Part shown: positions 30,773-43,109 of the stretch, one piece after another
Layout: each line of letters begins with the position of its first letter
Numbering within the stretch: position 1 is the stretch's first letter
Assembly: GCA_018672315.1 (NCBI GenBank)
Contig: CP076053.1
Coordinates: 2,715,827 to 2,779,826, forward strand
Length of the DNA stretch: 64,000 nt
Direction: 5' to 3'
From: Nocardioidaceae bacterium
GTDB taxonomy: Bacteria > Actinomycetota > Actinomycetes > Propionibacteriales > Nocardioidaceae
Notes under the pieces: model-generated
What the model saw: only the letters and a program-made list of their open reading frames with translations
What the model was told of the DNA's origin: nothing
The model's database searches: none
Translations under genes and position numbers: made by a program

Positions 30773-32301
30773 GCGGACCCCGCCGCGTCGTCGTGATCGG
30801 CGCCGGCCTCTCGGGCCTCGCGGCTGCCTGTCACCTGCGTGGCGCCGGGCACGACGTGCTCGTGCTCGAGCGCGAGGACCAGGTCGGCGGTCGCGCCGGC
30901 ACCTGGGAGACCGGGGGGTACCGGTTCGACACCGGCCCGGTCGTGATGACGATGCCGAACCTGCTCGCCGAGCCGCTGGCGGCCGTCGGCGCCGACCTGG
31001 AGTCGACCGTGCCGATGCGACGGCTCGACCCGAGCTACCGGGCCCACTTCGCCGACGGCAGTCGGCTCGACGTACGCGCCGACATGGCCGACCTCGAGGC
31101 CGAGGTCGCCCGCGTCTGCTCCCCGGCCGAGGCGGCCCGGCTGCGGGGGCTGTTGGCGTGGCTCGAGGAGCTCTACGACACCGAGATCGACGCGTTCCTC
31201 GATCGCAACTACGCCTCGCCGTTGGGACTCGCGAGCTCCCCTCGCGACGCGCTGCGGCTGCTGCGCCTCGGCGGTCTCGGCAGCCTGGACCGCGCCATCT
31301 CCCACCGGCTGCACGACGAGCGGCTGCAGAAGGTCTTCAGCTTCCAGGCGCTCTACGCGGGGGTCTCCCCGCAGGCGGCGCGTGCGGTGCTGGCGGTGAT
31401 CGCGCACATGGACGTGGTGCGTGGCGTGTCCTATCCCGAGGGCGGCATGCACGCCGTGCCGCGCGGCATGGCGCGGGCCTTCGAGGCGGCCGGCGGCGAG
31501 ATCGAGACGGGTGTCGAGGTCGCCGGCTTCACCCACGACGCGACCGGGGCGGTGACGGGCGTACGCCGGGCCGACGGACGCACCGAGCGCGCCGACGCCG
31601 TCGTCTGCACCGTCGACCTGCCCGTGGCGTACGAGCGTTTCCTGCCGGAGCTTCGCGCCCCGCGGGGGGTGCGCAAGGGCTCCTACTCGCCCTCGGCGGT
31701 CGTCTGGCACGTCGGCACCCGGACGCCGGTGCCGGCCGGGACCGCCCACCACAACATCCACTTCGGGGCCGACTGGTCGGGCGCGTTCGACGCCCTGATC
31801 GGGTCCCAGCAGCTGATGCCGGACCCGTCGCGACTGGTCACGGTGCCCTCGGTCAGCGACCCCGGCGCGGCCCCCGGGGGCGGCTCGACGCTGTACGTGC
31901 TCGAGCCGGTGCCACACCGTGGCAGCACGCTGGACTGGTCGCGGGAGACCGCGGCGATGCGCGAGCGGCTGCACGCGTTCGTGGAGGAGGCGGGCTACCT
32001 CATCGGATCCTCCGACATCGCGGTCGAGCGCCTCGTGACCCCTGAGGACTGGGAGGCCGCCGGGATGCACCTGGGCACACCGTTCGCGCTGGCGCACACC
32101 TTCGGGCAGTCGGGTCCGTTCCGGCCGGCGAACGTCGACCGGCGGGTGCCCGGGCTCGTGTTCGCCGGCTCGGGCACGACCCCGGGCGTGGGCATCCCGA
32201 TGGTGCTGATGAGCGGCAAGCACGCGGCCTGGCGCGTCACCGAGCACCTCGGGGGGCGTACGCGCCGCACCGCTGCTGCTCGACTGAGGCGGTCGGCGTG
32301 A
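30769..32301 (+). CDS. crtI: Phytoene desaturase
   Basis: 510 aa, the standard CrtI size. FAD-binding N-terminus VVVIGAGLSGLAAACHLRGAGHDVLVLE, then GGRAGTWETGGYRFDTGPVVMTMP, and the CrtI C-terminal motif GSGTTPGVGIPMVLMSGKHAA. A YPEGGMHAVPRGMARAFEAAG substrate-region motif is present. It converts phytoene stepwise to lycopene. ATGA overlap with crtE and GTGA overlap with the crtB-idi fusion, so translation is coupled. Confidence 0.95.
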   Translation: MSGPRRVVVIGAGLSGLAAACHLRGAGHDVLVLEREDQVGGRAGTWETGGYRFDTGPVVMTMPNLLAEPLAAVGADLESTVPMRRLDPSYRAHFADGSRLDVRADMADLEAEVARVCSPAEAARLRGLLAWLEELYDTEIDAFLDRNYASPLGLASSPRDALRLLRLGGLGSLDRAISHRLHDERLQKVFSFQALYAGVSPQAARAVLAVIAHMDVVRGVSYPEGGMHAVPRGMARAFEAAGGEIETGVEVAGFTHDATGAVTGVRRADGRTERADAVVCTVDLPVAYERFLPELRAPRGVRKGSYSPSAVVWHVGTRTPVPAGTAHHNIHFGADWSGAFDALIGSQQLMPDPSRLVTVPSVSDPGAAPGGGSTLYVLEPVPHRGSTLDWSRETAAMRERLHAFVEEAGYLIGSSDIAVERLVTPEDWEAAGMHLGTPFALAHTFGQSGPFRPANVDRRVPGLVFAGSGTTPGVGIPMVLMSGKHAAWRVTEHLGGRTRRTAAARLRRSA

Positions 32302-33887
32302 CGGGCCTGGCCACCCCCACCGCCGAGGGGTCACTTCTCGCGGAGGGCTACCGCCGCGCCGCCCGGATCACGCGGCAGCACGGCACCACGTACTACTGGG
32401 GCGCCCGGCTGCTGCCGCCGGACCAGCGCAAGCACGTGTTCAGCGTGTACGGGCTCGCCCGCCTCGCCGACGACATCGTCGACGAGCCGCAGGCGCTGGG
32501 CGTGCGAGGCTCGGCGGGGGTCGCGGCCCGCCTCGACGCCTTGGAGGCCGACTTCGTGCGTGCCGTGGAGACCGGAGGCGACGAGGGGTCGGTCGACCCG
32601 GTGGTGCTGGCCGCGGCCGCCACGACCCGTGAGCGGGGGATTGACCTGGAGTGCTTCACCCGGTTCTTCGCCGCGATGCGGCAGGACCTGACCACGACCT
32701 CGTACGCCACGTGGGAGGACCTGCTCGGCTACATGGACGGCTCCGCCGCGGTGATCGGCGAGATGATGCTGCCGGTGCTCGACCCGCCCGACCGGGCCGG
32801 GGCGGTCGACGCGGCCCGTGCGCTGGGGTTGGCGTTCCAGCTGACGAACTTCCTGCGCGACGTGGGGGAGGACCTGGACCGGGGTCGGGTCTACGTGCCG
32901 GCCGAAGACCTCGACCACTTCGGTGTCGACCCGCACGCCGTGCGTGACCAGGCGGTGCGCGGTGCCGGGGTGGGGCAGGAGTGGCGCGCGCTGATGCGCT
33001 TCGAGATCGCCCGCAACCGCCGGCTCTACCGCGAGGCCGACGCGGGGCTCGCGGCGCTGCCGCTGGGAGCGCGCCGGTGCGTGACGACGGCGCGGCTGCT
33101 GTACGCCCGCATCCTCGACCGCATCGAGGACCGCGACCACGACGTGTTCACCGGACGCGCCCGCGTCGCCCGACGCCACAAGCTCGCCACCGCCGCGCGG
33201 GTGCTGCGCTCGCCCGACCCCGCCACCTTCGCCCAGAGGGCACAAAATCACGCCGAGAGGGCAGAAAGTCACGGCGCAACGTGGCCCGACGACGACGACG
33301 TCGTCCTCCTCGACGCGGCCGGCCACACGATCGGCACCGGCGCGAAGTCGGCCGTGCACCACGACGCGACACCGCTGCACCTGGCGTTCAGCTGCTACGT
33401 CGTCGACGCCGCCGGCCGGGTGCTGGTCACCACCCGGGCCCACGACAAGGCGAGCTTCCCGGGGGTGCTGACCAACTCCGTGTGCGGCCATCCGCGCCCC
33501 GGCGAGGACCTCGTCTCGGCCGTACGCCGCCGGGTGCACCACGAGCTCGGGCTCGAGGTCGAGCACGTACGCCTGGTGCTGCCCGAGTTCGCGTACGTCG
33601 CCCGCACCGACCACCTCGTCGAGCGCGAGACCTGCCCCGTCGTGGTGGCGACCGTCGCGCCCGGCGCCACCCTCGCGCCCCACCCGGCCGAGGTGGCCGA
33701 CGTCGCGTGGTGGGAGTGGTCGCAGCTGCTCGACGCGGCCACCGATCCCGACTCCGGGCTCTCGACGTGGGCGCGGCTGCAGGTGCCGCAGCTGGCGGCG
33801 CTGGGCGCCGACCCGCGGACGTGGCCCGAGGCGTCGTACGCGCTGCTGCCCCCTGCCCTCCGCGACCTGGAGGCCGGCCGTGCCTGA
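32298..33887 (+). CDS. Phytoene synthase fused to type I isopentenyl-diphosphate isomerase
   Basis: 529 aa in one uninterrupted frame. Residues 1-305 are squalene/phytoene synthase: GTTYYWGARLLPP, first Asp motif RLADDIVDE, LTNFLRDVGEDLDRGRVYVP as the second. Residues 330-529 are type I IDI of the Nudix fold: SAVHHDATPLHLAFSCY, LTNSVCGHPRPGED with the catalytic Cys, and VERETCPVVVA with the catalytic Glu. Both active sites look complete, so the chain should isomerise IPP/DMAPP and make phytoene. The linker (residues 313-327) holds a duplicated 7-residue unit, AQRAQNH/AERAESH. In most actinobacteria crtB and idi are separate genes. Confidence 0.92.
   Translation: MTGLATPTAEGSLLAEGYRRAARITRQHGTTYYWGARLLPPDQRKHVFSVYGLARLADDIVDEPQALGVRGSAGVAARLDALEADFVRAVETGGDEGSVDPVVLAAAATTRERGIDLECFTRFFAAMRQDLTTTSYATWEDLLGYMDGSAAVIGEMMLPVLDPPDRAGAVDAARALGLAFQLTNFLRDVGEDLDRGRVYVPAEDLDHFGVDPHAVRDQAVRGAGVGQEWRALMRFEIARNRRLYREADAGLAALPLGARRCVTTARLLYARILDRIEDRDHDVFTGRARVARRHKLATAARVLRSPDPATFAQRAQNHAERAESHGATWPDDDDVVLLDAAGHTIGTGAKSAVHHDATPLHLAFSCYVVDAAGRVLVTTRAHDKASFPGVLTNSVCGHPRPGEDLVSAVRRRVHHELGLEVEHVRLVLPEFAYVARTDHLVERETCPVVVATVAPGATLAPHPAEVADVAWWEWSQLLDAATDPDSGLSTWARLQVPQLAALGADPRTWPEASYALLPPALRDLEAGRA
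33235..33273. repeat. Direct repeat inside the CrtB-Idi linker
   Basis: AGAGGGCACAAAATCACG (33235-33252) and AGAGGGCAGAAAGTCACG (33256-33273), 21 bp apart, therefore in phase. The stretch is AT-richer than the gene. The 13-mer CGCCGAGAGGGCA of the second copy also occurs near 39032 inside the triple-fusion gene, so it may belong to a dispersed repeat. Confidence 0.7.
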
Positions 33888-35039: not shown

Positions 35040-35342
35040 TCACCACGAGGACTTCGTCATGCCCGGCAGCTCACCCCTGTGCGCCATCTCGCGCAGCCGG
35101 ATGCGGGACAGGCCGACCTTGCGCACGTACCCCCGGGGTCGGCCGTCGACCTGGTCCCGGTTGCGTACGCGGGTGGGGCTGGCGTCGCGCGGCAGCTTCG
35201 ACAGCGCCCGCACGGCCGCGGCGCGCTCCTGCGGTGTGTCGGCCGTACGCACCGCCTCCTTCAGCTCGGCGCGGCGCGCGGCGTAGCGCGCGACGACCTT
35301 CTTGCGCCGCTCGTTGGCGGCGATCTTCGACGTCTTGGCCAT
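35040..35342 (-). CDS. rpsN: 30S ribosomal protein S14, zinc-independent paralogue
   Basis: 100 aa, long-form S14 with no cysteines ([17 protein letters not shown] ... [20 protein letters not shown] ... LPGMTKSSW). The zinc form is about 61 aa with a CxxC-x-CxxC knuckle. Last gene of a run of five r-protein genes (S18, L36, L28, L33, S14) with 0-5 bp spacing or overlaps. It should replace zinc-binding S14 when zinc is scarce. Confidence 0.95.
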
Positions 35343-35343
35343 C

Positions 35344-35520
35344 TCAGCGCTCCTCGCGGAAATCGACGTGTCGGTGGATCGTCGGGTCGTACCTCCTCAG
35401 CGTGATCCGGTCGGGGTCGTGGCGGCGGTTCTTGCGGGTCACGTAGGTGAAGCCCGTGCCCGCGGTCGACCGCAGCTTGATGATGGGGCGGATGTCGGAG
35501 CCCCTTCCCTTGCCGGCCAT
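35344..35520 (-). CDS. rpmG: 50S ribosomal protein L33, zinc-independent paralogue
   Basis: 58 aa ([19 protein letters not shown] ... [21 protein letters not shown]). The zinc-binding Cys pairs of the C+ form are missing. The start overlaps the L28 stop by one base (TGATG) and one base separates its stop from the S14 start. Confidence 0.93.
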
Positions 35521-35756
35521 CAGAGGCGCTCCCCTCGGGCGAGGAGGTCCGCAGCCACAGCGTCGATGCCGCGCTGGTCGACGGTCTTGATGCCACGGGC
35601 GCTCAGCGTGAGCGTGACGTGGCGGCGCAGGGTCGGCACCCAGTAGCGCTTGCGCTGGATGTTGACGTCGAAGCGCCGCTTCGTACGCCGGTGCGAGTGC
35701 GAGACGTGGTGGCCGAAGCCCGGCTGGGCCCCGGTGACCTGACAGACACGGGACAT
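35520..35756 (-). CDS. rpmB: 50S ribosomal protein L28, zinc-independent paralogue
   Basis: 78 aa from the ATG at 35756 ([29 protein letters not shown]); a GTG at 35765 overlapping the L36 stop is in frame but would add a non-family MSG. One Cys remains, so the four-Cys zinc site of C+ L28 is absent. Typical length. Confidence 0.93.
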
Positions 35757-35761
35757 CCCAC

Positions 35762-35884
35762 TCACCGCTGCCTGGTCTTGAGCCGCGGGTTCAACTTGTT
35801 GATGACGTACGTGCGCCCCCGCCGGCGCACGACCTGCGAGCCCGGCTGCCTCTTCACGTCACGAATTGAGTTGCGGACCTTCAT
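35762..35884 (-). CDS. rpmJ: 50S ribosomal protein L36, zinc-independent paralogue
   Basis: 40 aa type B L36 ([19 protein letters not shown], then [19 protein letters not shown]), with no cysteines. Its ATG overlaps the S18 stop by 4 bp. Confidence 0.93.
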
Positions 35885-36165
35885 CGGTCTCCTCCTGTCG
35901 GGGTGGAGCGGCCGGACCCGCCCGGCACGCTGGTGTAGGGGAGCAGCGCCATCTCTCGAGCGTTCTTGACCGCCCGGGTCACTGCGCGCTGCTGTTGCGG
36001 GCTCAGCCCGGTGACGCGACGCGACCGGATCTTGCCGCGGTCGGAGATGAACTGCCGGAGCAGCGAGACGTCCTTGTAGTCGACCGACGTCACGCCCGGC
36101 GCCAGCAGCGGTTGGCGTGGCTTGCGGACGACTCGCGGGCCGCCCGTACGCCCCCGCGGGCTCAT
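35881..36165 (-). CDS. rpsR: 30S ribosomal protein S18, zinc-independent paralogue
   Basis: 94 aa ([58 protein letters not shown]), with no cysteines, so a C- copy. The ATG overlaps the L32 stop by 4 bp. The C-terminal tail [13 protein letters not shown] is extra and unstructured. Confidence 0.93.
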
Positions 36166-36368
36166 CGGTCGCCCCGGTTCACGCTGCCGTCGGTGCGGTA
36201 GGGCGACGGGTCGAGATGACCGCGCTGCACCGCGCGGATCAGACGCCGCGGCACGCGGTAGGACCGCCCCTCGACGGTGATCGGCACGAGGTCGGGGGCG
36301 GTCGCCTTCCACTGCGAGCGGCGGTGGCGGGTGTTGCTGCGGGACATGCGGCGCTTGGGTACGGCCAC
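36162..36368 (-). CDS. rpmF: 50S ribosomal protein L32, zinc-independent paralogue
   Basis: 68 aa from GTG 36368 after [27 protein letters not shown] is the L32 N-terminus; the C+ zinc ribbon is replaced by [16 protein letters not shown] without cysteines. It starts the second half of the zinc-starvation operon after a 78-bp gap that contains a dispersed repeat (36390-36424). Confidence 0.92.
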
Positions 36369-36389
36369 GGAGTCCTCCTGTCTGTCGTT

Positions 36390-36424
36390 GGTTGAGGAGC
36401 CGAGGAACGAGGCGTCTCGAAACC
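36390..36424. repeat. Dispersed intergenic repeat, copy 1
   Basis: GGTTGAGGAGC then CGAGGAACGAGGC and GTCTCGAAACC. Same family as copies near 43160, 48060, 48107 and 48153. It lies inside the zinc-starvation gene group, between the CobW-like gene and rpmF. Confidence 0.8.
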
Positions 36425-36446
36425 CGGTGGGCGACGTGGCGAGATC

Positions 36447-37532
36447 TCAGGCCGCGTCGCGGATGTCGCCGAGCCACGGCTCGAGGCCGTCCTCGACGAC
36501 GTGCCAGTACGACGCCGGCAGCGCCGACTCGCCCGGGGTGAGCAGCAGGTCTGCGAACGCCTCGCGCAGCTGTGCCGGCGGGGACCCCAGCCCGGTGACC
36601 AGCAGCCGCGTCTGCGGCGTACGACGGCCCCACGGGCGCCAGGCCCCGATGCTGAGCTGGCCCCCGGAACCGGCCCACTCGAGCATGTCGCCGGGCCGGG
36701 TCGGCACCCAGAAGCAGCCGCGGGAGCGGAACGGGCCGCCACCCAGCCGCTCGATGTCCTCCAGCAGCCGCTCGTGGTGGAACGCCCGCGGCGAGCACAG
36801 GTCCAGGCGCCAGGCCCTGCCGCCGACGAGGGTGGCGGGCGGTGCCTCCAACGGTGGGTCTGCCCAGGCGCGGGAGGCGAGGGGGGAGTGCTTCGCCGCG
36901 GCCAGCCGTGGTGCGTCGAGCTGCTCGACGCCGATGAGCACCTCGGCGTCGTGGCGCGCGAGGGCGGTGAGCAGGTCGCGTACGGACTCGCGCCCGGGAC
37001 CGGGGTCGTGGTCGACCACGACGACGTCGGCGCGTTCGACCTGCGCGCAGGCGACCTCGCCGACACCACGGTCGTCGTCGGGCCCGGTGTGCACGTCGCG
37101 CTCGCGGAGCAGGGCGTCACCGAGCAGGTCGCGCGGCACGTCCCCGGCGCTGAGGGCTGCGATGACCGAGGCGATCCTCAGGCGACGGGCCAGGCGGGTG
37201 TCACGGGCGATGACGTGGGTGAGCTGCTCGGCCCCGGTGCCGGTGGGCAGCGCGGAGACGATCGTCTGCCAGCGACCGTCGGTGGCCAGTCGGTCGAGCG
37301 TGGGCACGACGTCCTCGCGCAGGGCGCAGGAGGTGCAGGCGTGCTCGAGCTGGACGTGCTCGGTCTCGAGCAGGCCCGTGGCGTCGCTGACGGTGCGGGT
37401 GAGCACCTGGGCGTACGGGTCGATGCGATGGCGCACGAGGACCGCGCCGGGGAGGTCCCAGCCCAGCGAGACCATCGTGGAGTCCAGCGCGATCGGCTCG
37501 ACGCCGGTGACGACGAGCAGGGGCGTCCTCAT
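36447..37532 (-). CDS. CobW/COG0523-like protein (MRF-type, degenerate P-loop)
   Basis: 361 aa. It aligns by pattern with COG0523 proteins: [18 protein letters not shown] at the position of the GTPase P-loop, [21 protein letters not shown] at the CxCC metal motif, [11 protein letters not shown], and a C-terminal [19 protein letters not shown] domain. The canonical GxxGxGKT is missing and the metal motif is reduced to CTSC. In mycobacteria a CobW-like factor (MRF) encoded with the C- r-proteins recruits a hibernation factor to ribosomes under zinc starvation; this is the likely counterpart. ATGA overlap with rpmE2 upstream. Confidence 0.8.
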
Positions 37533-37810
37533 GACGCGGACCCTCCGGCGGCGCGCGCGGCGCCGGCGTAGCGACGCCTGAACTTCTCCACCCGGCCCTC
37601 GGTGTCGAGGGTGCGCGAGGTGCCGGTCCAGAACGGGTGGGAGTCGCTGGAGATGTCGACGTCGACGACCGGCACGGGAGTGCCGTCGACCTCGACGGTC
37701 TCGGTCGGGCGTGGGCTGTCGGCCAGCGTCGAGCGCGTCAGGAAGAGCTTGCCGGTCGAGCGGTCGCGGAAGGCGACGACGCCGTAGGCGGGGTGGATGT
37801 CGGGTTGCAT
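37529..37810 (-). CDS. rpmE2: 50S ribosomal protein L31 type B, zinc-independent
   Basis: 93 aa, ATG after [27 protein letters not shown] and [11 protein letters not shown] and [13 protein letters not shown] are type B L31 hallmarks; no CxxC pair. First gene after two Zur-like palindromes, coupled to the CobW-like gene. Confidence 0.95.
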
Positions 37811-37825
37811 GAGAACTCCTTGCTC

Positions 37826-37840
37826 TGAGAACGGTTCTCA
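37826..37840. promoter_or_regulatory. Zur-like palindrome 1
   Basis: TGAGAAC-G-GTTCTCA, perfect 7-1-7, 16 bp upstream of rpmE2. The position between zinc-free r-protein genes and a divergent gene fits Zur control; the sequence is GC-richer than classic TGAAAAT-type boxes. Confidence 0.75.
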
Positions 37841-37853
37841 ACTTAGCATTGGT

Positions 37854-37885: not shown

Positions 37886-38182
37886 ATGGGGCCGATCGCC
37901 GCGGTGATGGTGTGCGAGCACGGCGACTGCGCCCACGGGAGCAGTGACGTGGTCGAGGCGCTGCGGCCGCTCGTGGTGCGTACGCCCCGGGCGATGCTCG
38001 TGCGCACCGCCTGCCTGCACCCGGACGGTGGCTGCGGCCTCGACGAGGGTGGGGCAGGGAGCTGCTGGGTGCGGATGCAGCAGTGCACGGGCGACCTGCG
38101 ACCGATGGGTGCGTCGACGGCGGTGCAGGGGGCGGTCGCGGCGACCTATCGCGAGGTGGAGCGGTGGCTGGACCGCGCCTGA
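37886..38182 (+). CDS. Small Cys/His-rich protein divergent from the Zur boxes
   Basis: 98 aa, ATG after GAGGAGC. Not assigned to a named family. It begins AAVMVCEHGDCAHGSSDVVEAL and has further cysteines in TACLHPDGGCGLDEG and SCWVRMQQC, six in all after residue 9, with His next to several. The strand-helix alternation and Cys spacing recall thioredoxin-like [2Fe-2S] proteins. Its promoter contains a Zur-like box, so expression should rise when zinc is low. It may be a metal carrier or a zinc-sparing protein; this is inference. Confidence 0.7.
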   Translation: MGPIAAVMVCEHGDCAHGSSDVVEALRPLVVRTPRAMLVRTACLHPDGGCGLDEGGAGSCWVRMQQCTGDLRPMGASTAVQGAVAATYREVERWLDRA

Positions 38183-38229: not shown

Positions 38230-38246
38230 TGACAGCACCACTGTCA
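38230..38246. promoter_or_regulatory. Inverted repeat upstream of the triple-fusion gene
   Basis: TGACAG-CACCA-CTGTCA, 6-bp arms, 16 nt before the ATG at 38262; placed to act as an operator. Confidence 0.45.
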
Positions 38247-38261: not shown

Positions 38262-41222
38262 ATGGCTGACCTGCGTACGCGTCTGTCCCGCGCCGCCTCC
38301 ACGGCGCGCACCCTCGCTCCGGTGCTCGCGCGCACGGCGCGCGACACCGCGGAGGACCTGGTGGGGAGAGTCCGTCCTCCCGCAGCCGACGACGGCGGGG
38401 CGACGGTGGAGGTGCCCGAGCCCTCCGGCACCGAGGACTTCGCGCGCCGGGTCCACGCCGTGCGCGAGGTGCCCGGCTCCGTCGAAGACACCGTGGCGCT
38501 GGTCTGCGACCTCGACCGCTGGCACGAGTGGCTGACGCTGCACCTGTCGTGGCGCGGTGAGCGGCCCTCGACGTTGAGCGCGGAGACGACCGGCGAGCAG
38601 TTCACCCAGCAGATCTCCCTGATGGACATCCCCGCCCAGGCCCGGTGGACCGTCGCCCGCGTCGGCACCGGTGACCACGCGGGCTTCGAGCTGCGCGGCA
38701 CCGGCCCGATGGGCATCACGGTCGGACTGTGGGCCACGGTCGTGCCCGCCGGCTCCGGGGCGGCCGTCCGCCTGGACGGGGCGTTGGACGGCCCACCCGT
38801 ACGCGGCCCCGTGGGACTCACCGCCCTCCGCAGCGTGGAGACCGCGGCACGCGAGTCCCTCGACCTGCTCGCCGGGCTGTTGGGTGGTGGCGCGTCGGCG
38901 CGCATCGCGGACGAGCCCGTACGCCACGAGGCCACCGGCCGCATGCTCGACCCGTCGACACCGGTGGTGGTCGGCGTCGGGCAGGCCGTACGCCGCCCCG
39001 GCCAGGACGACCCGGTCGAACCCATCGTCCTCGCCGAGAGGGCACTTCGCGCGGCGGCCGCCGACGCCGCCCCCGCCGCCGTGGACGCCGACGCCCTGCT
39101 GGGTCGGGCGGACGCGGTGTACGCCGTGCCGTCGGCGTCCTGGACCTACGCCGACCAGGCCGGACTCACCGCCGCACGCGTCGGCGCGTTCGACGTCGGA
39201 TCCGATGAGGAGTCGCGGCCCGAGACGGTGCAGACCTCCCCGTACGGCGGCGACGGCGGCCAGCTCGCGCTGAACGACGCGGCGCAGCAGATCGTCGACG
39301 GCCGCGCCCACGTGGTGCTCGTCAGCGGCGCCGAGGCGGGCGCCGCGATCGCCGCGATCCAGGCGGAGGGCCGCGACCCCGACTGGACCCAGGGTTCACC
39401 CGACGGAGCCACCGGACCCGACCGTGTCATCGGCGTCGACAAGCAGGCCAACAACGAGGCGGAGACCTCGGTCGGGTTGGGCGCGCCGATCTACATGTAC
39501 GCGCTCATGGAGTCCGCGCTGCGCCGCGCCTCCGGCCTCTCCGCCGCCGAGCACACCTCCCGCATCGCCGGACTGTGGTCGCGGCTGGCGCGGACGGCGA
39601 CGGTCAATCCGTACGCGTGGGACCGCTCGGGCCACACGCCCGGGGAGATCGCGGCGCCCACCGCCGACAACCGGATGGTCTCCGAGCCGTACACCAAGCT
39701 CATGTGCGCCAACCTGCAGGTCGACCTCGGCGCGGGCGTGATCCTCACCAGCGTCGCGGCGGCGCAGGCGCTGGGCATCGACCAGTCGCGCTGGGTGTTC
39801 CTGCACGCGGGGGCGTCCGCGGTCGACGAGTGGTTCGTCTCCGAGCGGGCGTCGCTGACCGAGTCGCCCGCGATCGCCGCGGCCGGTGCCGCGGCGCTGG
39901 CGCACGCGGGCGTCACGGCGCAGGACCTGGGGCCGGTCGACCTCTACTCCTGCTTCCCCTCGGCCGTGCAGATCGGCGCCGCGGCGCTGGGGCTGCCGAT
40001 CGACGACCCCGACCGGCCGTTGAGCGTGACGGGCGGGCTGACGTTCGCCGGCGGGCCGGGCAACGCGTACGGCCTGCACGGCGTCGCCACGATGGTGCCG
40101 ATGCTGCGGCATCGGCCCGAGGAGTTCGGGCTCACGACGTCGCTCGGCTGGTACGCCACCAAGCACGCCCTCGGCGTCTGGTCGGCGAGCCCTCCGGAGA
40201 AGGCGTACGCGAACCTCCACCCGATGGTCGACCGCCCCGCCCCCCGGCCGGTGTCGGTGGACCCGGACGTGCTCGACCAGGAGGGGAGCGTCGTCGAGGC
40301 CGTGACCGTCGCCCATGCCCGCGACGGGTCGGTCGAGGGGGCGATCGTCTCGGTGATCACCGCCGACGGCACGCGGGTGCTGCTGCGCCGCGAGACGGCG
40401 AAGGGCATCGAGCCGGGGGAGCGCACCCTCCCCGCACCTCCCGAGCCCCCGCTCCGGGTCACCCGCGCCGGCGCCGACGGCGAGATCGCGATCCTGACCC
40501 TCAACCGCCCCGCCAAGCGCAACGCCGTCGACCGGCGGATGGCGCTGATGCTCGAGCGTGCCGTCGACGACGCCGAGGCCGACGCGTCCGTCCGCGTCAT
40601 CGTCCTGACCGGCATGGGCGACCACTTCTGCGCGGGCATGGACCTCTCCGGGGCCAACCGGGGCGAGGTGCCCGTCACCGACCGCCGCGGCCCGCTCGGC
40701 CTCGCGGCCGAGCCGCCGACGAAGCCGACGATCGCCGCGGTCGAGGGGTCCGCGCTCGCGGGCGGCTTCGAGCTGGTGCTGTGCGCGGACCTGGTGGTAG
40801 CGGGGGAAACCGCCACGTTCGGGCTGCCCGAGGCCAAGCGCGGTCTGCTGGCGGCGGCGGGCGGCCTGCTGCGTACGTCGCTGCGCCTCCCACGTCCTGT
40901 CGCGCTGGAGCTGGCGATGACCGGGGACCCGCTGCCTGCCTCCCGGCTCCACGACCTCGGCCTGGTCAACCGCGTCGTCGACGACGGCGCGGCGCTCGAC
41001 GCCGCGCTCGAGCTGGCCGCGACGGTCGCTGCGAACGCACCCCTGTCCGTCCGCGTCGGCAAGCAGATCGTCGACGAGGCCCCCGGCTGGGTGAGCCTCG
41101 ACGACGAGGAGGCCTTCGAGAAGCAGAGCCAGATGGCGAGCCCGGTCATCCTCAGCGACGACGCGAAGGAGGGCGTGGCCGCGTGCGCCGAGAAGCGTCA
41201 GCCGACCTGGACCGGTCGCTGA
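38262..41222 (+). CDS. SRPBCC - thiolase-like - enoyl-CoA hydratase triple fusion
   Basis: 986 aa, one frame. Residues about 60-215 are SRPBCC (VREVPGSVEDTVALVCDLDRWHEW, GFELRGTGPMGITVGLWATV). Residues about 230-720 are a thiolase/acetyl-CoA acetyltransferase-like part (STPVVVGVGQAVRRPGQDDPV, HVVLVSGAEAGAA, DLYSCFPSAVQIGA, VTGGLTFAGGPGNAYGLHG) ending in an OB-like segment. Residues about 735-986 are crotonase (ILTLNRPAKRNAVDRRM, GDHFCAGMDLSG oxyanion region, VEGSALAGGFELVLCADLVVA). The thiolase Cys is seen as SCFPS. All are usually separate genes. A fatty-acid or sterol side-chain degradation step with channelled substrate is plausible. Confidence 0.85.
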   Translation: MADLRTRLSRAASTARTLAPVLARTARDTAEDLVGRVRPPAADDGGATVEVPEPSGTEDFARRVHAVREVPGSVEDTVALVCDLDRWHEWLTLHLSWRGERPSTLSAETTGEQFTQQISLMDIPAQARWTVARVGTGDHAGFELRGTGPMGITVGLWATVVPAGSGAAVRLDGALDGPPVRGPVGLTALRSVETAARESLDLLAGLLGGGASARIADEPVRHEATGRMLDPSTPVVVGVGQAVRRPGQDDPVEPIVLAERALRAAAADAAPAAVDADALLGRADAVYAVPSASWTYADQAGLTAARVGAFDVGSDEESRPETVQTSPYGGDGGQLALNDAAQQIVDGRAHVVLVSGAEAGAAIAAIQAEGRDPDWTQGSPDGATGPDRVIGVDKQANNEAETSVGLGAPIYMYALMESALRRASGLSAAEHTSRIAGLWSRLARTATVNPYAWDRSGHTPGEIAAPTADNRMVSEPYTKLMCANLQVDLGAGVILTSVAAAQALGIDQSRWVFLHAGASAVDEWFVSERASLTESPAIAAAGAAALAHAGVTAQDLGPVDLYSCFPSAVQIGAAALGLPIDDPDRPLSVTGGLTFAGGPGNAYGLHGVATMVPMLRHRPEEFGLTTSLGWYATKHALGVWSASPPEKAYANLHPMVDRPAPRPVSVDPDVLDQEGSVVEAVTVAHARDGSVEGAIVSVITADGTRVLLRRETAKGIEPGERTLPAPPEPPLRVTRAGADGEIAILTLNRPAKRNAVDRRMALMLERAVDDAEADASVRVIVLTGMGDHFCAGMDLSGANRGEVPVTDRRGPLGLAAEPPTKPTIAAVEGSALAGGFELVLCADLVVAGETATFGLPEAKRGLLAAAGGLLRTSLRLPRPVALELAMTGDPLPASRLHDLGLVNRVVDDGAALDAALELAATVAANAPLSVRVGKQIVDEAPGWVSLDDEEAFEKQSQMASPVILSDDAKEGVAACAEKRQPTWTGR

Positions 41223-41225
41223 CCC

Positions 41226-41672
41226 TCAGGTGCGTGCGGCCCGCACGACGGCACCGAGTAGGGCGCGCGTCACCAGGCCGACCGGGACGCGCTCGATCAG
41301 CGGCAGCCGCGGCCGGTACCGCAGCGTGTAGTCGATGCGGGTCCCGCCCGTGCCCTCGGTGAGCACGACCTCGCCGGAGTAGTCGCGGAAGGGGACACCG
41401 GAGACGGCGGCGTACCCGAAGCGGTGCGGCGCGTCGAAGGTGACGACCTCCTCCACGATCGCGGGGGCGGGGCCGGGCATCGCGATGCGGCGTACGGCAC
41501 CGACGCCATTGCGCATCGGCTTGCCGTCCTCCAGCAGCGTGACGCTCACGCCCGGTCCCCACGAGGACATGCCCTCGTGGTCGGTCAGCACCGACCAGAC
41601 ATGGTCGATCGACGCGGACACCGTCGCCGAGGCGGTCGTGGCGCGGAGGCGGGAGGGGTCGGGCTGGGACAT
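41226..41672 (-). CDS. SRPBCC family protein
   Basis: 148 aa, CAGGAG before the ATG. ATVSASIDHVWSVLTDHEGMSSWGPG start, VTLLEDGKPMRNGVGAVRRI, and EEVVTFDAPHRFGYAAVSG are typical of the polyketide cyclase/dehydrase branch. Convergent with the triple fusion, 3 bp between stop codons. Ligand unknown. Confidence 0.85.
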   Translation of the reverse strand: MSQPDPSRLRATTASATVSASIDHVWSVLTDHEGMSSWGPGVSVTLLEDGKPMRNGVGAVRRIAMPGPAPAIVEEVVTFDAPHRFGYAAVSGVPFRDYSGEVVLTEGTGGTRIDYTLRYRPRLPLIERVPVGLVTRALLGAVVRAART

Positions 41673-41873: not shown

Positions 41874-43109
41874 ATGACGTCTCGACTCAGGTGGCCTGCG
41901 GTCACGAAGCAGACCGTGCCTTGGCAGACGAACCCTGATCAGCGCGGCCTCGGTGGGCGACGCCCGAATCGTGCGGATCGCGAGCTGTCCCAGATCATTG
42001 TCGAGGTGCCTCCTCAGATCGAGCCTGCCCGCGTGCACCTTCCGTCGGACCTTGCAGAGCTGTGCCGAGAGGTCGAGGCGGACGTGGTGCGGCTCGACAG
42101 TCGAGAGGGTCAGACGCTGTCGGGCCTGGGCTCTTTCCTGGTGCGCAGCGAGTCCGTCGCCTCCTCGCGTATCGAGCAGGTGTACGCCGACCTCGACGAG
42201 GTCGCGCGGGCGTCCGTCGACGCGGACGCGTCAGACGCGGCACGCACCACAGCAGCGGCTTCGGCCGCCATGCTGACGCTGCTGTCGGCTGTCGCACCGG
42301 GGCGACCCCTCACCGAGACCCTCCTTCTGGAGGGCCACCGTGCTCTCATGGCGGACGATCGGCTCGAGGGTACGTACGCCGGCCGCTATCGCGACATGCA
42401 GAACTGGGTGGGCGGCAGCGACTTCTCCCCGAGGGGGGCGGCGCACGTGCCTCCGCCTCCCGAGCGCGTGGCCGGCCTGATGACGGACGTGATCGCCTTC
42501 GCTGCGCGATCTGACGTCCCGCCGTTGGCCCAGGCAGCGCTGACCCACGGACAGTTCGAGGCGATCCACCCGTTCACCGACGGCAACGGTCGGATCGGCC
42601 GTGCCGTGATCGCCATGGTGCTGCGCTCTCGAGGGACGGCGACGTCGGTGGTCATCCCCTCGGCGTCAGCGATGCTGGCAGACGTCGACAGGTACTTCTC
42701 CGCGCTCGCGGCGTATCGAGCGGGTGACGCGGGTGTGCTCGTGCGGTACCTGGCGGAGTGCACCGCGCATGCGACGGCCGAGGCCGCCGTGTCCGCGACC
42801 AACCTCCGCCGGTTGGGACACGAGTGGGTCGAGCGCGTACGCCCCCGAGCGCGCTCGTCAGCCGCAGCGCTCGTCGAGGGGCTGCTCGTGAGGCCCGTGC
42901 TCGACATCGCGGCCGCTGGAGAACTCACCGGATCGACGCCTGCGCGCACGTACGAAGCGCTCGATCGACTGGTCGAGCACGACATTCTGCGCGAGGTGAC
43001 CGGTCGAGCGAAGAACCGGGTCTGGGTCGCCGGGGAGGTCATGACGGAGATCGCCGATCTCGATGAGCGCATCGGCCGGCGCATGTCTCCAGGCAGCGCG
43101 TGGCGGTAG
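41874..43109 (+). CDS. Fic family protein with C-terminal winged helix
   Basis: 411 aa, ATG after AAGGAGGAGG. Fic catalytic motif HPFTDGNGRIGR (about residue 235, with the His) preceded by the flap region. The N-terminal inhibitory helix is SVASSRIEQ, an S-x-x-x-E pattern in which the usual following Gly/Asn is Gln. The C-terminal part (LTGSTPARTYEALDRLVEHDILREV) is a winged helix, as in Fic-like proteins thought to bind DNA. It should transfer AMP or a related group to a target protein. The gene stands alone with a palindromic promoter. Confidence 0.92.
   Translation: MTSRLRWPAVTKQTVPWQTNPDQRGLGGRRPNRADRELSQIIVEVPPQIEPARVHLPSDLAELCREVEADVVRLDSREGQTLSGLGSFLVRSESVASSRIEQVYADLDEVARASVDADASDAARTTAAASAAMLTLLSAVAPGRPLTETLLLEGHRALMADDRLEGTYAGRYRDMQNWVGGSDFSPRGAAHVPPPPERVAGLMTDVIAFAARSDVPPLAQAALTHGQFEAIHPFTDGNGRIGRAVIAMVLRSRGTATSVVIPSASAMLADVDRYFSALAAYRAGDAGVLVRYLAECTAHATAEAAVSATNLRRLGHEWVERVRPRARSSAAALVEGLLVRPVLDIAAAGELTGSTPARTYEALDRLVEHDILREVTGRAKNRVWVAGEVMTEIADLDERIGRRMSPGSAWR

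What the first reader, a model, noticed from the sequence alone, without database searches (positions are those of the whole stretch)
38262..41222. SRPBCC-thiolase-crotonase triple fusion
Three lipid-handling modules in one 986-aa chain, with motifs for thiolase and crotonase intact. Order (ligand binder, C-C bond enzyme, hydratase) is unlike the classic trifunctional complex. A palindrome (TGACAG-N5-CTGTCA) precedes it.
Basis: partly seen in the sequence, partly recalled or inferred. Interest (0 to 1): 0.6.

Follow-up and report, generated by a model that had tools for sequence, protein, structure and literature searches.

The report
One-chain hydratase plus likely aldolase
One long bacterial protein joins a lipid-binding domain, a thiolase look-alike that has lost the thiolase machinery but keeps the residue pair of a recently described steroid-cleaving aldolase, and a water-adding enzyme, so it may shorten acyl chains by a route that skips the usual oxidation step.

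Summary
The 986-aa ORF is real, single and intact, and belongs to a conserved family: among 294 Nocardioidaceae genomes searched at least 48 (the window's own included) carry the complete triple fusion and one more is cut by a contig end; nine Nocardia loci carry it too. The crotonase domain keeps both catalytic Glu in 58 of 58 triple fusions. The nucleophilic Cys is Gly, GHP is GGP, CxG is LGW, NEAF is YSCF. In 166 of 166 aligned TLP domains Tyr562, Cys564 and Gly330 are invariant, three of only five invariant positions. Tyr and Cys match the catalytic pair Tyr302/Cys304 of the steroid aldolase CtSal. Best reading: a self-contained enoyl-CoA hydratase/retro-aldolase that needs no dehydrogenase; activity and substrate are untested. 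TLP-crotonase fusions and abutting gene pairs recur in separate TLP clades, but against this, TLPs in general lie beside crotonase genes no more often than ordinary thiolases do, and the fold comparison does not separate aldolases from thiolases. The palindrome is not conserved.

The parts
38262..41222 (+). the fusion gene, 986 aa: SRPBCC - TLP (thiolase-like) - crotonase
38448..38876 (+). SRPBCC / Polyketide_cyc2 domain (residues 63-205), closest solved relative MSMEG_5634 (7wa9)
38946..40388 (+). thiolase-like (TLP1-type) domain with its C-terminal add-on (residues 229-709)
39246..39251 (+). Gly329-Gly330; Gly330 stands where thiolases have the nucleophilic Cys (166 of 166 TLPs)
   Evidence: PMC3406046
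39945..39956 (+). YSCF motif (residues 562-565); Tyr562 and Cys564 are the proposed retro-aldolase pair
40050..40058 (+). GGP (residues 597-599) in place of GHP
40278..40388 (+). part of the TLP add-on domain that matches PF18313 (residues 673-709), below the family cut-off and shorter at its end than in relatives
40473..41219 (+). crotonase (enoyl-CoA hydratase) domain, residues 738-986
40770..40772 (+). Glu837, first crotonase catalytic Glu
40830..40832 (+). Glu857, second crotonase catalytic Glu
38230..38246 (.). palindrome TGACAG-N5-CTGTCA, present but not conserved; probably chance

Best explanation
A single-chain acyl-CoA shortening enzyme that needs no dehydrogenase. The SRPBCC domain holds or delivers a bulky or long acyl chain (inferred). 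The crotonase domain adds water to a 2-enoyl-CoA with Glu837/Glu857, giving a 3-hydroxyacyl-CoA (inferred from family and intact residues). The TLP domain cannot do thiolysis because it lacks the nucleophilic Cys (shown by sequence); it then breaks the C2-C3 bond by a retro-aldol step: Tyr562 takes the proton of the 3-hydroxyl, Cys564 protonates the CoA enolate, and an aldehyde or ketone plus acetyl-CoA (propionyl-CoA from a 2-methyl chain) leave (inferred by analogy with CtSal). This explains why hydratase and thiolase fold are joined without the 3-hydroxyacyl-CoA dehydrogenase that ordinary beta-oxidation needs between them. It would suit chains, such as 3-methyl-branched ones, whose 3-hydroxyl is tertiary and cannot be oxidised to a ketone.
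For: (1) Thiolase residues are gone: Gly330 at the nucleophile site in 166 of 166 TLP rows, no CxS/NEAF/GHP/CxGxG in the window domain, against 37/40/40/35 of 40 true thiolases. (2) Tyr562 and Cys564 are in 166 of 166 rows, and with Gly330, Tyr477 and Gly592 are the only 5 invariant of 520 positions, at a mean pairwise identity of 42%. (3) The TLP profile aligns its YSCFP with YDCFP of TbSLP (5ab4, E 8.1e-5); PMC12329534 equates TbSLP Y297DCF with CtSal Y302DCY, where Tyr302 and Cys304 are essential and the Cys-nucleophile site is Gly (passages and section 9 read). (4) Crotonase Glu837/Glu857 are intact in 58 of 58 triple fusions. (5) TLP-crotonase coupling recurs: split but abutting genes in the Nocardia sister group (crotonase next downstream in 5 of 5; tree), other TLP-crotonase fusions in distant TLP clades (at least 4 changes of the fused label forced by starred branches), and an overlapping pair in Pseudomonas SBV1 (ORF11/BvaB2, PMC4619459, table passage). 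(6) Unfused TLPs of seven Nocardioidaceae lie in a conserved cluster with aldehyde dehydrogenase (6 of 7), acyl-CoA dehydrogenase (6 of 7), and a ChsH2-type OB protein plus a second thiolase-like protein (5 of 7) (Pfam of one representative each).
Against: No activity is shown for any TLP. Neighbour test negative: a crotonase lies within about 8 kb in 10 of 40 actinobacterial TLP loci against 12 of 40 true-thiolase loci, abutting or fused in 6 of 40 against 4 of 40; HAD in 1 of 40 of each, so absence of HAD does not discriminate. In the proteobacterial samples 5 of 42 TLP loci are linked, one of them (L223) reached through a locus that already matched the crotonase. Fold comparison does not discriminate: CtSal 9myr Z 27.5 and Ltp2 6ok1 Z 28.3 lie among ordinary thiolases, and 7yvy (a thiolase, Z 32.2) and 4egv (31.8) rank higher. 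The model is weak just at the YSCF motif (model residues 346-350 below pLDDT 50). CtSal Gln352, thought to help Cys304, corresponds to Gly/Ala598 in TLPs (position inferred from the GHP alignment). Three of five crotonases in the distant 'double' fusions have lost the second Glu. MsTLP1 bound CoA only weakly (Kd 0.6 mM).
Confidence: 0.5

Rival explanations
1. The TLP domain is catalytically dead and acts as a CoA/acyl-chain holding scaffold for the crotonase; only the hydratase works.
For: Thiolase residues are gone; MsTLP1 is a monomer without thiolase activity (PMC3406046).
Against: Tyr562, Cys564 and Gly330 are kept in 166 of 166 sequences while 515 of 520 positions vary; many TLPs stand without a crotonase beside them.
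Confidence: 0.17
2. The crotonase half is not a hydratase but a related lyase (for example a CoA-dependent ammonia lyase acting on 3-aminoacyl-CoA, as BvaB2 does), with the TLP half acting on the product or its hydrate.
For: In Pseudomonas SBV1 the TLP gene ORF11 overlaps BvaB2, a crotonase-family enzyme shown to deaminate beta-valinyl-CoA (PMC4619459, abstract and passages). BvaB2's best solved relative there, 3r0o, is also a strong match of the window's crotonase domain (E 2.4e-58).
Against: The window's domain is closer to the EchA1 type (3trr, 6ldz) and to NF006100, and both hydratase Glu are kept, though BvaB2 keeps them too; no amino-acid ligase or transporter was seen next to the window gene.
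Confidence: 0.12
3. The TLP half catalyses another reaction through a CoA enolate (malonyl-CoA-type decarboxylation, or aldol condensation in the synthetic direction).
For: TbSLP, which has the same Tyr-x-Cys motif, decarboxylates malonyl-CoA slowly (reported in PMC12329534); the same residues could serve a condensation.
Against: CtSal did not decarboxylate malonyl-CoA (same passage); pairing with a hydratase fits cleavage better (inference).
Confidence: 0.13
4. An ordinary beta-oxidation fusion with an active 3-ketoacyl-CoA thiolase.
For: Thiolase fold and database name 'acetyl-CoA acetyltransferase'.
Against: No nucleophilic Cys and none of the other thiolase fingerprints; the family score is about half the curated cut-off; no dehydrogenase domain.
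Confidence: 0.02

Closest known systems
MsTLP1 (PDB 4EGV), thiolase-like protein type 1 of Mycobacterium smegmatis
   Same: Closest solved relative of the middle domain by sequence (profile E 1.9e-100) and by Foldseek; Gly at the Cys site, YSCF, altered GHP and CxG, extra C-terminal beta-barrel.
   Different: MsTLP1 stands alone and is a monomer of unknown function; here the domain is fused to SRPBCC and crotonase, with GGP/LGW where MsTLP1 has GGL/NGG, and a shorter add-on.
CtSal-Shy steroid side-chain aldolase/hydratase (PDB 9MYR, PMC12329534) and TcLtp2-ChsH2 (6OK1)
   Same: Thiolase fold without nucleophilic Cys; Tyr and (CtSal) Cys at the same motif; works with a hydratase and without a dehydrogenase.
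   Different: Those are separate subunits with a MaoC-type hydratase and a DUF35 partner; here the hydratase is a crotonase in the same chain, there is no DUF35, and the motif is YSCF, not YDCY or YDHF. No sequence hit to 9MYR at E <= 0.1.
Trifunctional beta-oxidation complex (FadA/FadB)
   Same: Joins crotonase and a thiolase-fold part.
   Different: No 3-hydroxyacyl-CoA dehydrogenase, no thiolase residues, other order.
ORF11-BvaB2 gene pair of Pseudomonas sp. SBV1 (PMC4619459)
   Same: A TLP gene (30% to 4EGV) directly followed by, and overlapping, a crotonase-family gene.
   Different: Two genes, no SRPBCC; BvaB2 was shown to be a CoA ammonia lyase; ORF11 has no assigned role in the passages I read.
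MSMEG_5634 (PDB 7WA9), acyl-AcpM-binding helix-grip protein (PMC9014085, abstract read)
   Same: Closest solved relative of the SRPBCC domain (E 1.9e-16).
   Different: A free-standing protein that binds acyl-AcpM with C36-52 chains; ligand of the fused domain unknown.

Membership tests
Classical / SCP2 thiolase | nucleophilic Cys in CxS | tested here: not met
   Gly330 in 166 of 166 TLP rows, window included; 37 of 40 true thiolases match CxS
Classical / SCP2 thiolase | NEAF, GHP and CxG fingerprints | tested here: not met
   window has YSCF, GGP, LGW; NEAF 40, GHP 40, CxGxG 35 of 40 controls
Thiolase-like protein type 1 (TLP1) | YSCF fingerprint with Gly at the Cys site and altered GHP/CxG | tested here: met
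   features as given in PMC3406046
Thiolase-like protein type 1 (TLP1) | additional C-terminal beta-barrel domain | tested here: inconclusive
   PF18313 match E 0.014, 15.7 bits under a cut-off of 26.1, 37 of 83 positions; profile of the group aligns with 4egv to residue 511; the window's end is shorter than in relatives
Thiolase-like protein type 1 (TLP1) | monomeric, no thiolase activity | not testable with these tools
   needs protein
Sal/Ltp2-type steroid aldolase | catalytic Tyr of the YDxF/Y motif and, for Sal, Cys two residues on | tested here: met
   Tyr562 and Cys564 in 166 of 166, aligned with TbSLP YDCF
Sal/Ltp2-type steroid aldolase | DUF35 partner domain | tested here: not met
   no PF01796 match in the whole genome at E <= 0.001; none in the fusion
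Sal/Ltp2-type steroid aldolase | retro-aldol cleavage of a 3-hydroxyacyl-CoA | not testable with these tools
   needs assay
Crotonase-type enoyl-CoA hydratase | two catalytic Glu (rat 144/164) | tested here: met
   Glu837 63 of 63, Glu857 60 of 63 (all 58 triple fusions; 2 Q and 1 H in the five double fusions)
Crotonase-type enoyl-CoA hydratase | family match above curated cut-off | tested here: met
   PF00378 156.8 against 27 bits; NF006100 313.5 against 282 bits
SRPBCC (Polyketide_cyc2) | family match above curated cut-off | tested here: met
   PF10604 38.7 against 27.4 bits
Trifunctional beta-oxidation enzyme | 3-hydroxyacyl-CoA dehydrogenase domain | tested here: not met
   no PF02737/PF00725 match among the six Pfam families at E <= 1

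The most novel reading that the evidence does not exclude
TLP1-type proteins as a whole, found in 34 of 296 actinobacterial, 47 of 289 alphaproteobacterial and 10 of 274 gammaproteobacterial genomes sampled and without a function since their 2012 structure, are a family of acyl-CoA retro-aldolases with a Tyr/Cys pair and a built-in OB-like domain in place of DUF35; the fusion is a one-chain hydratase-aldolase with its own lipid-binding domain, a dehydrogenase-free bypass of beta-oxidation for chains whose 3-hydroxyl cannot be oxidised.
Probability: 0.4. Interest if true: 0.78.

Novelty: new variant of a known kind. Interest (0 to 1): 0.6.

Why it matters
TLP1 is a widespread orphan family with a crystal structure but no function. 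The natural fusion to a hydratase, together with the invariant Tyr/Cys pair and the missing Cys nucleophile, gives it a concrete, testable reaction. If right, a group of genes now named 'acetyl-CoA acetyltransferase' would be renamed as aldolases, and one polypeptide would offer a two-step C-C cleavage (or, reversed, C-C bond-forming) biocatalyst.

Tried and rejected
Neighbour statistics as a test of the pathway: negative or uninformative. Crotonase within about 8 kb in 10 of 40 TLP loci and 12 of 40 true-thiolase loci; ACAD 6 against 13, SDR 9 against 18, ALDH 3 against 2, HAD 1 against 1; abutting or fused 6 against 4, fused 2 against 0. The 40 TLP loci are 40 of the 43 listed matches other than the window's (three second or third copies not fetched). 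The thiolase loci were chosen by me: best-scoring rows of 20 genomes and 20 low-scoring rows. Families there were called with HMMs built from few seeds, so counts may be low.

Palindrome as operator: absent in homologues. A different palindrome (AATAGTTCC-type, arms of 8 or more, spacer 2) stands upstream in 8 of 9 Nocardia triple fusions, beside a divergent TetR gene; not in the window.

Full-length structure model: weak (mean pLDDT 68.3, pTM 0.49), not used for fold search. TLP-only model: pTM 0.77, but low at the YSCF motif, so no geometry of the pair is claimed. Fold search does not separate aldolase from thiolase.

Steroid pathway as context: not supported by the genome's lack of PF01796; one group of six MlaD/Mce matches exists. 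No steroid marker gene was searched for.

First regular expressions for CxS and CxG were too narrow and were redone.

Literature: ten searches. In them I found no paper that assigns an aldolase role to TLP1 or describes this triple fusion; the library holds open-licence papers only. In PMC12329534 the words TLP, 4EGV, crotonase and fusion do not occur in the main text.

Rows dropped before counts: L001 and L014 (same contigs as L038 and L048 by length), L037 (the window), L023 (TLP in two frames), L085 from the SRPBCC count; the tree used every fifth triple fusion.
Full report
The ORF. Window 38262-41222 (+) reads as 986 aa from ATG without a stop in a one-contig genome of 3.6 Mb; no other full-length copy exists there, only crotonase-domain matches. 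Pfam and NCBIfam give SRPBCC (63-205), a thiolase-fold part that best fits PRK08257-type 'acetyl-CoA acetyltransferase' but far under its cut-off (229-708), and a crotonase of the PRK08252 type (738-986).

Distribution. A tree of 114 TLP domains puts them in one clade (SH-aLRT 98), together with L146, a further triple fusion from the phylum sample; the sister group is five Nocardia-type TLPs whose crotonase is a separate gene directly downstream (L009-L012, L149; L023, with a broken TLP, also has it). Other TLP-crotonase fusions, without SRPBCC, lie in distant TLP clades: L086-L090, L165, L217, L220, L262, and L223. On a tree of 121 rows the fused label needs six changes, at least four forced by starred branches.

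The thiolase part is not a thiolase. In MsTLP1, the solved relative, Cys89 of Z. ramigera thiolase is Gly102, NEAF is YSCF, GHP is GGL and CxG is NGG; no thiolase activity was found and the function was left open (PMC3406046, Results read in full). The window has GGD, YSCF, GGP and LGW. Over 114 TLPs and then 166 from actinobacteria, proteobacteria and plasmids, Gly330, Tyr477, Tyr562, Cys564 and Gly592 are the only invariant positions of 520; Gly598 stands in 160 of 166, Ala in 6. Forty true thiolases from the same genomes served as control: NEAF 40, GHP 40, CxS 37, CxGxG 35.

What it resembles. CtSal, a bile-acid side-chain aldolase with thiolase fold, uses Tyr302 and Cys304 of a YDCY motif; Y302F nearly abolishes and C304A/S/H abolish detectable activity, and the Cys-nucleophile site is Gly (PMC12329534: abstract, passages, section 9). 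The authors suggest that TbSLP (YDCF) is an aldolase too; they do not mention TLP1. The profile of the window's group aligns YSCFP with TbSLP's YDCFP and the GGD with its GGAG. So the pair is in the right place by sequence. Fold comparison places CtSal, Ltp2, TbSLP and ordinary thiolases alike at Z 26-32, which neither supports nor weakens the aldolase reading, and the model is unsure at the motif.

The crotonase part keeps Glu837 (63 of 63) and Glu857 (60 of 63; the three exceptions are double fusions). Its best solved relatives are EchA1-type proteins. A related crotonase next to a TLP gene in Pseudomonas SBV1, BvaB2, is an ammonia lyase (PMC4619459, abstract and passages), so hydration is likely but not certain. 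That cluster makes 3-methylcrotonyl-CoA; a hydratase plus retro-aldolase would turn it into acetone and acetyl-CoA. The authors propose the leucine route instead.

The SRPBCC part is closest to MSMEG_5634, which binds acyl-AcpM with C36-52 chains (PMC9014085, abstract). A role in holding long or bulky chains is an inference.

Context. The window's gene has no conserved metabolic neighbour. In 30 of 57 homologues the gene upstream is divergent and belongs to one of two clusters whose one tested member each is a TetR regulator. Unfused TLPs of seven Nocardioidaceae lie in a cluster with Mce/MMPL genes, a ferredoxin-reductase-like protein (7 of 7), a ChsH2-type OB protein and a second thiolase-like protein (5 of 7), aldehyde dehydrogenase (6 of 7) and acyl-CoA dehydrogenase (6 of 7). 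An aldehyde dehydrogenase is what a retro-aldol product would need. In six of ten plasmid-collection records with a TLP the crotonase is fused or abutting, but these were drawn by likeness to the window's TLP. In samples drawn by family the rate is 6 of 40 (Actinomycetota), 3 of 31 (class of L034, one of the three, L223, not independent) and 2 of 11 (class of L035), against 4 of 40 for true thiolases. Linkage frequency alone is therefore no argument; recurrence of actual fusions (none in 40 thiolase loci) is a modest one.

Judgement. Shown: one gene, three domains, conserved family, no thiolase residues, invariant Tyr/Cys/Gly, intact hydratase residues. Inferred: retro-aldol chemistry, order of the two steps, lipid-holding role, substrate class. 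I put 0.5 on the hydratase/retro-aldolase reading.

Noticed in passing
window 41226-41672 (-): A separate 148-aa SRPBCC protein (PF10604) ends 3 bases after the fusion gene, convergent with it; relation unknown.
   Followed up: partly
window 35043-37841: S14 and L31 ribosomal protein genes and a CobW_C-type protein, with a perfect palindrome TGAGAACGGTTCTCA at 37826-37840 (0 expected in shuffles) before them and before a 98-aa Cys-rich ORF at 37886-38182; looks like a zinc (Zur) regulon, a label recalled, not tested.
   Followed up: partly
window 32298-33887 (+): Phytoene/squalene synthase domain fused to a NUDIX domain in one 529-aa ORF, in a carotenoid-type cluster.
   Followed up: no
L086-L090: TLP-crotonase fusions without SRPBCC in which 3 of 5 crotonase domains have lost the second catalytic Glu.
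   Followed up: partly
L091-L097: Unfused TLP in a conserved Mce/MMPL, ferredoxin reductase, OB protein, thiolase-like, aldehyde dehydrogenase cluster; the thiolase-like neighbour has YENF.
   Followed up: partly
upstream of the fusion in L002-L005, L007, L008, L013, L015: Conserved palindrome of the AATAGTTCC-N2-GGAACTATT type between a divergent TetR gene and the fusion in 8 of 9 Nocardia loci; likely operator.
   Followed up: partly
window 40389-40472: The window's TLP add-on ends about 17 residues earlier than in close relatives, and its TLP sits on a long branch (0.45).
   Followed up: no
window 42084-43109 (+): Fic/DOC family protein (PF02661).
   Followed up: no
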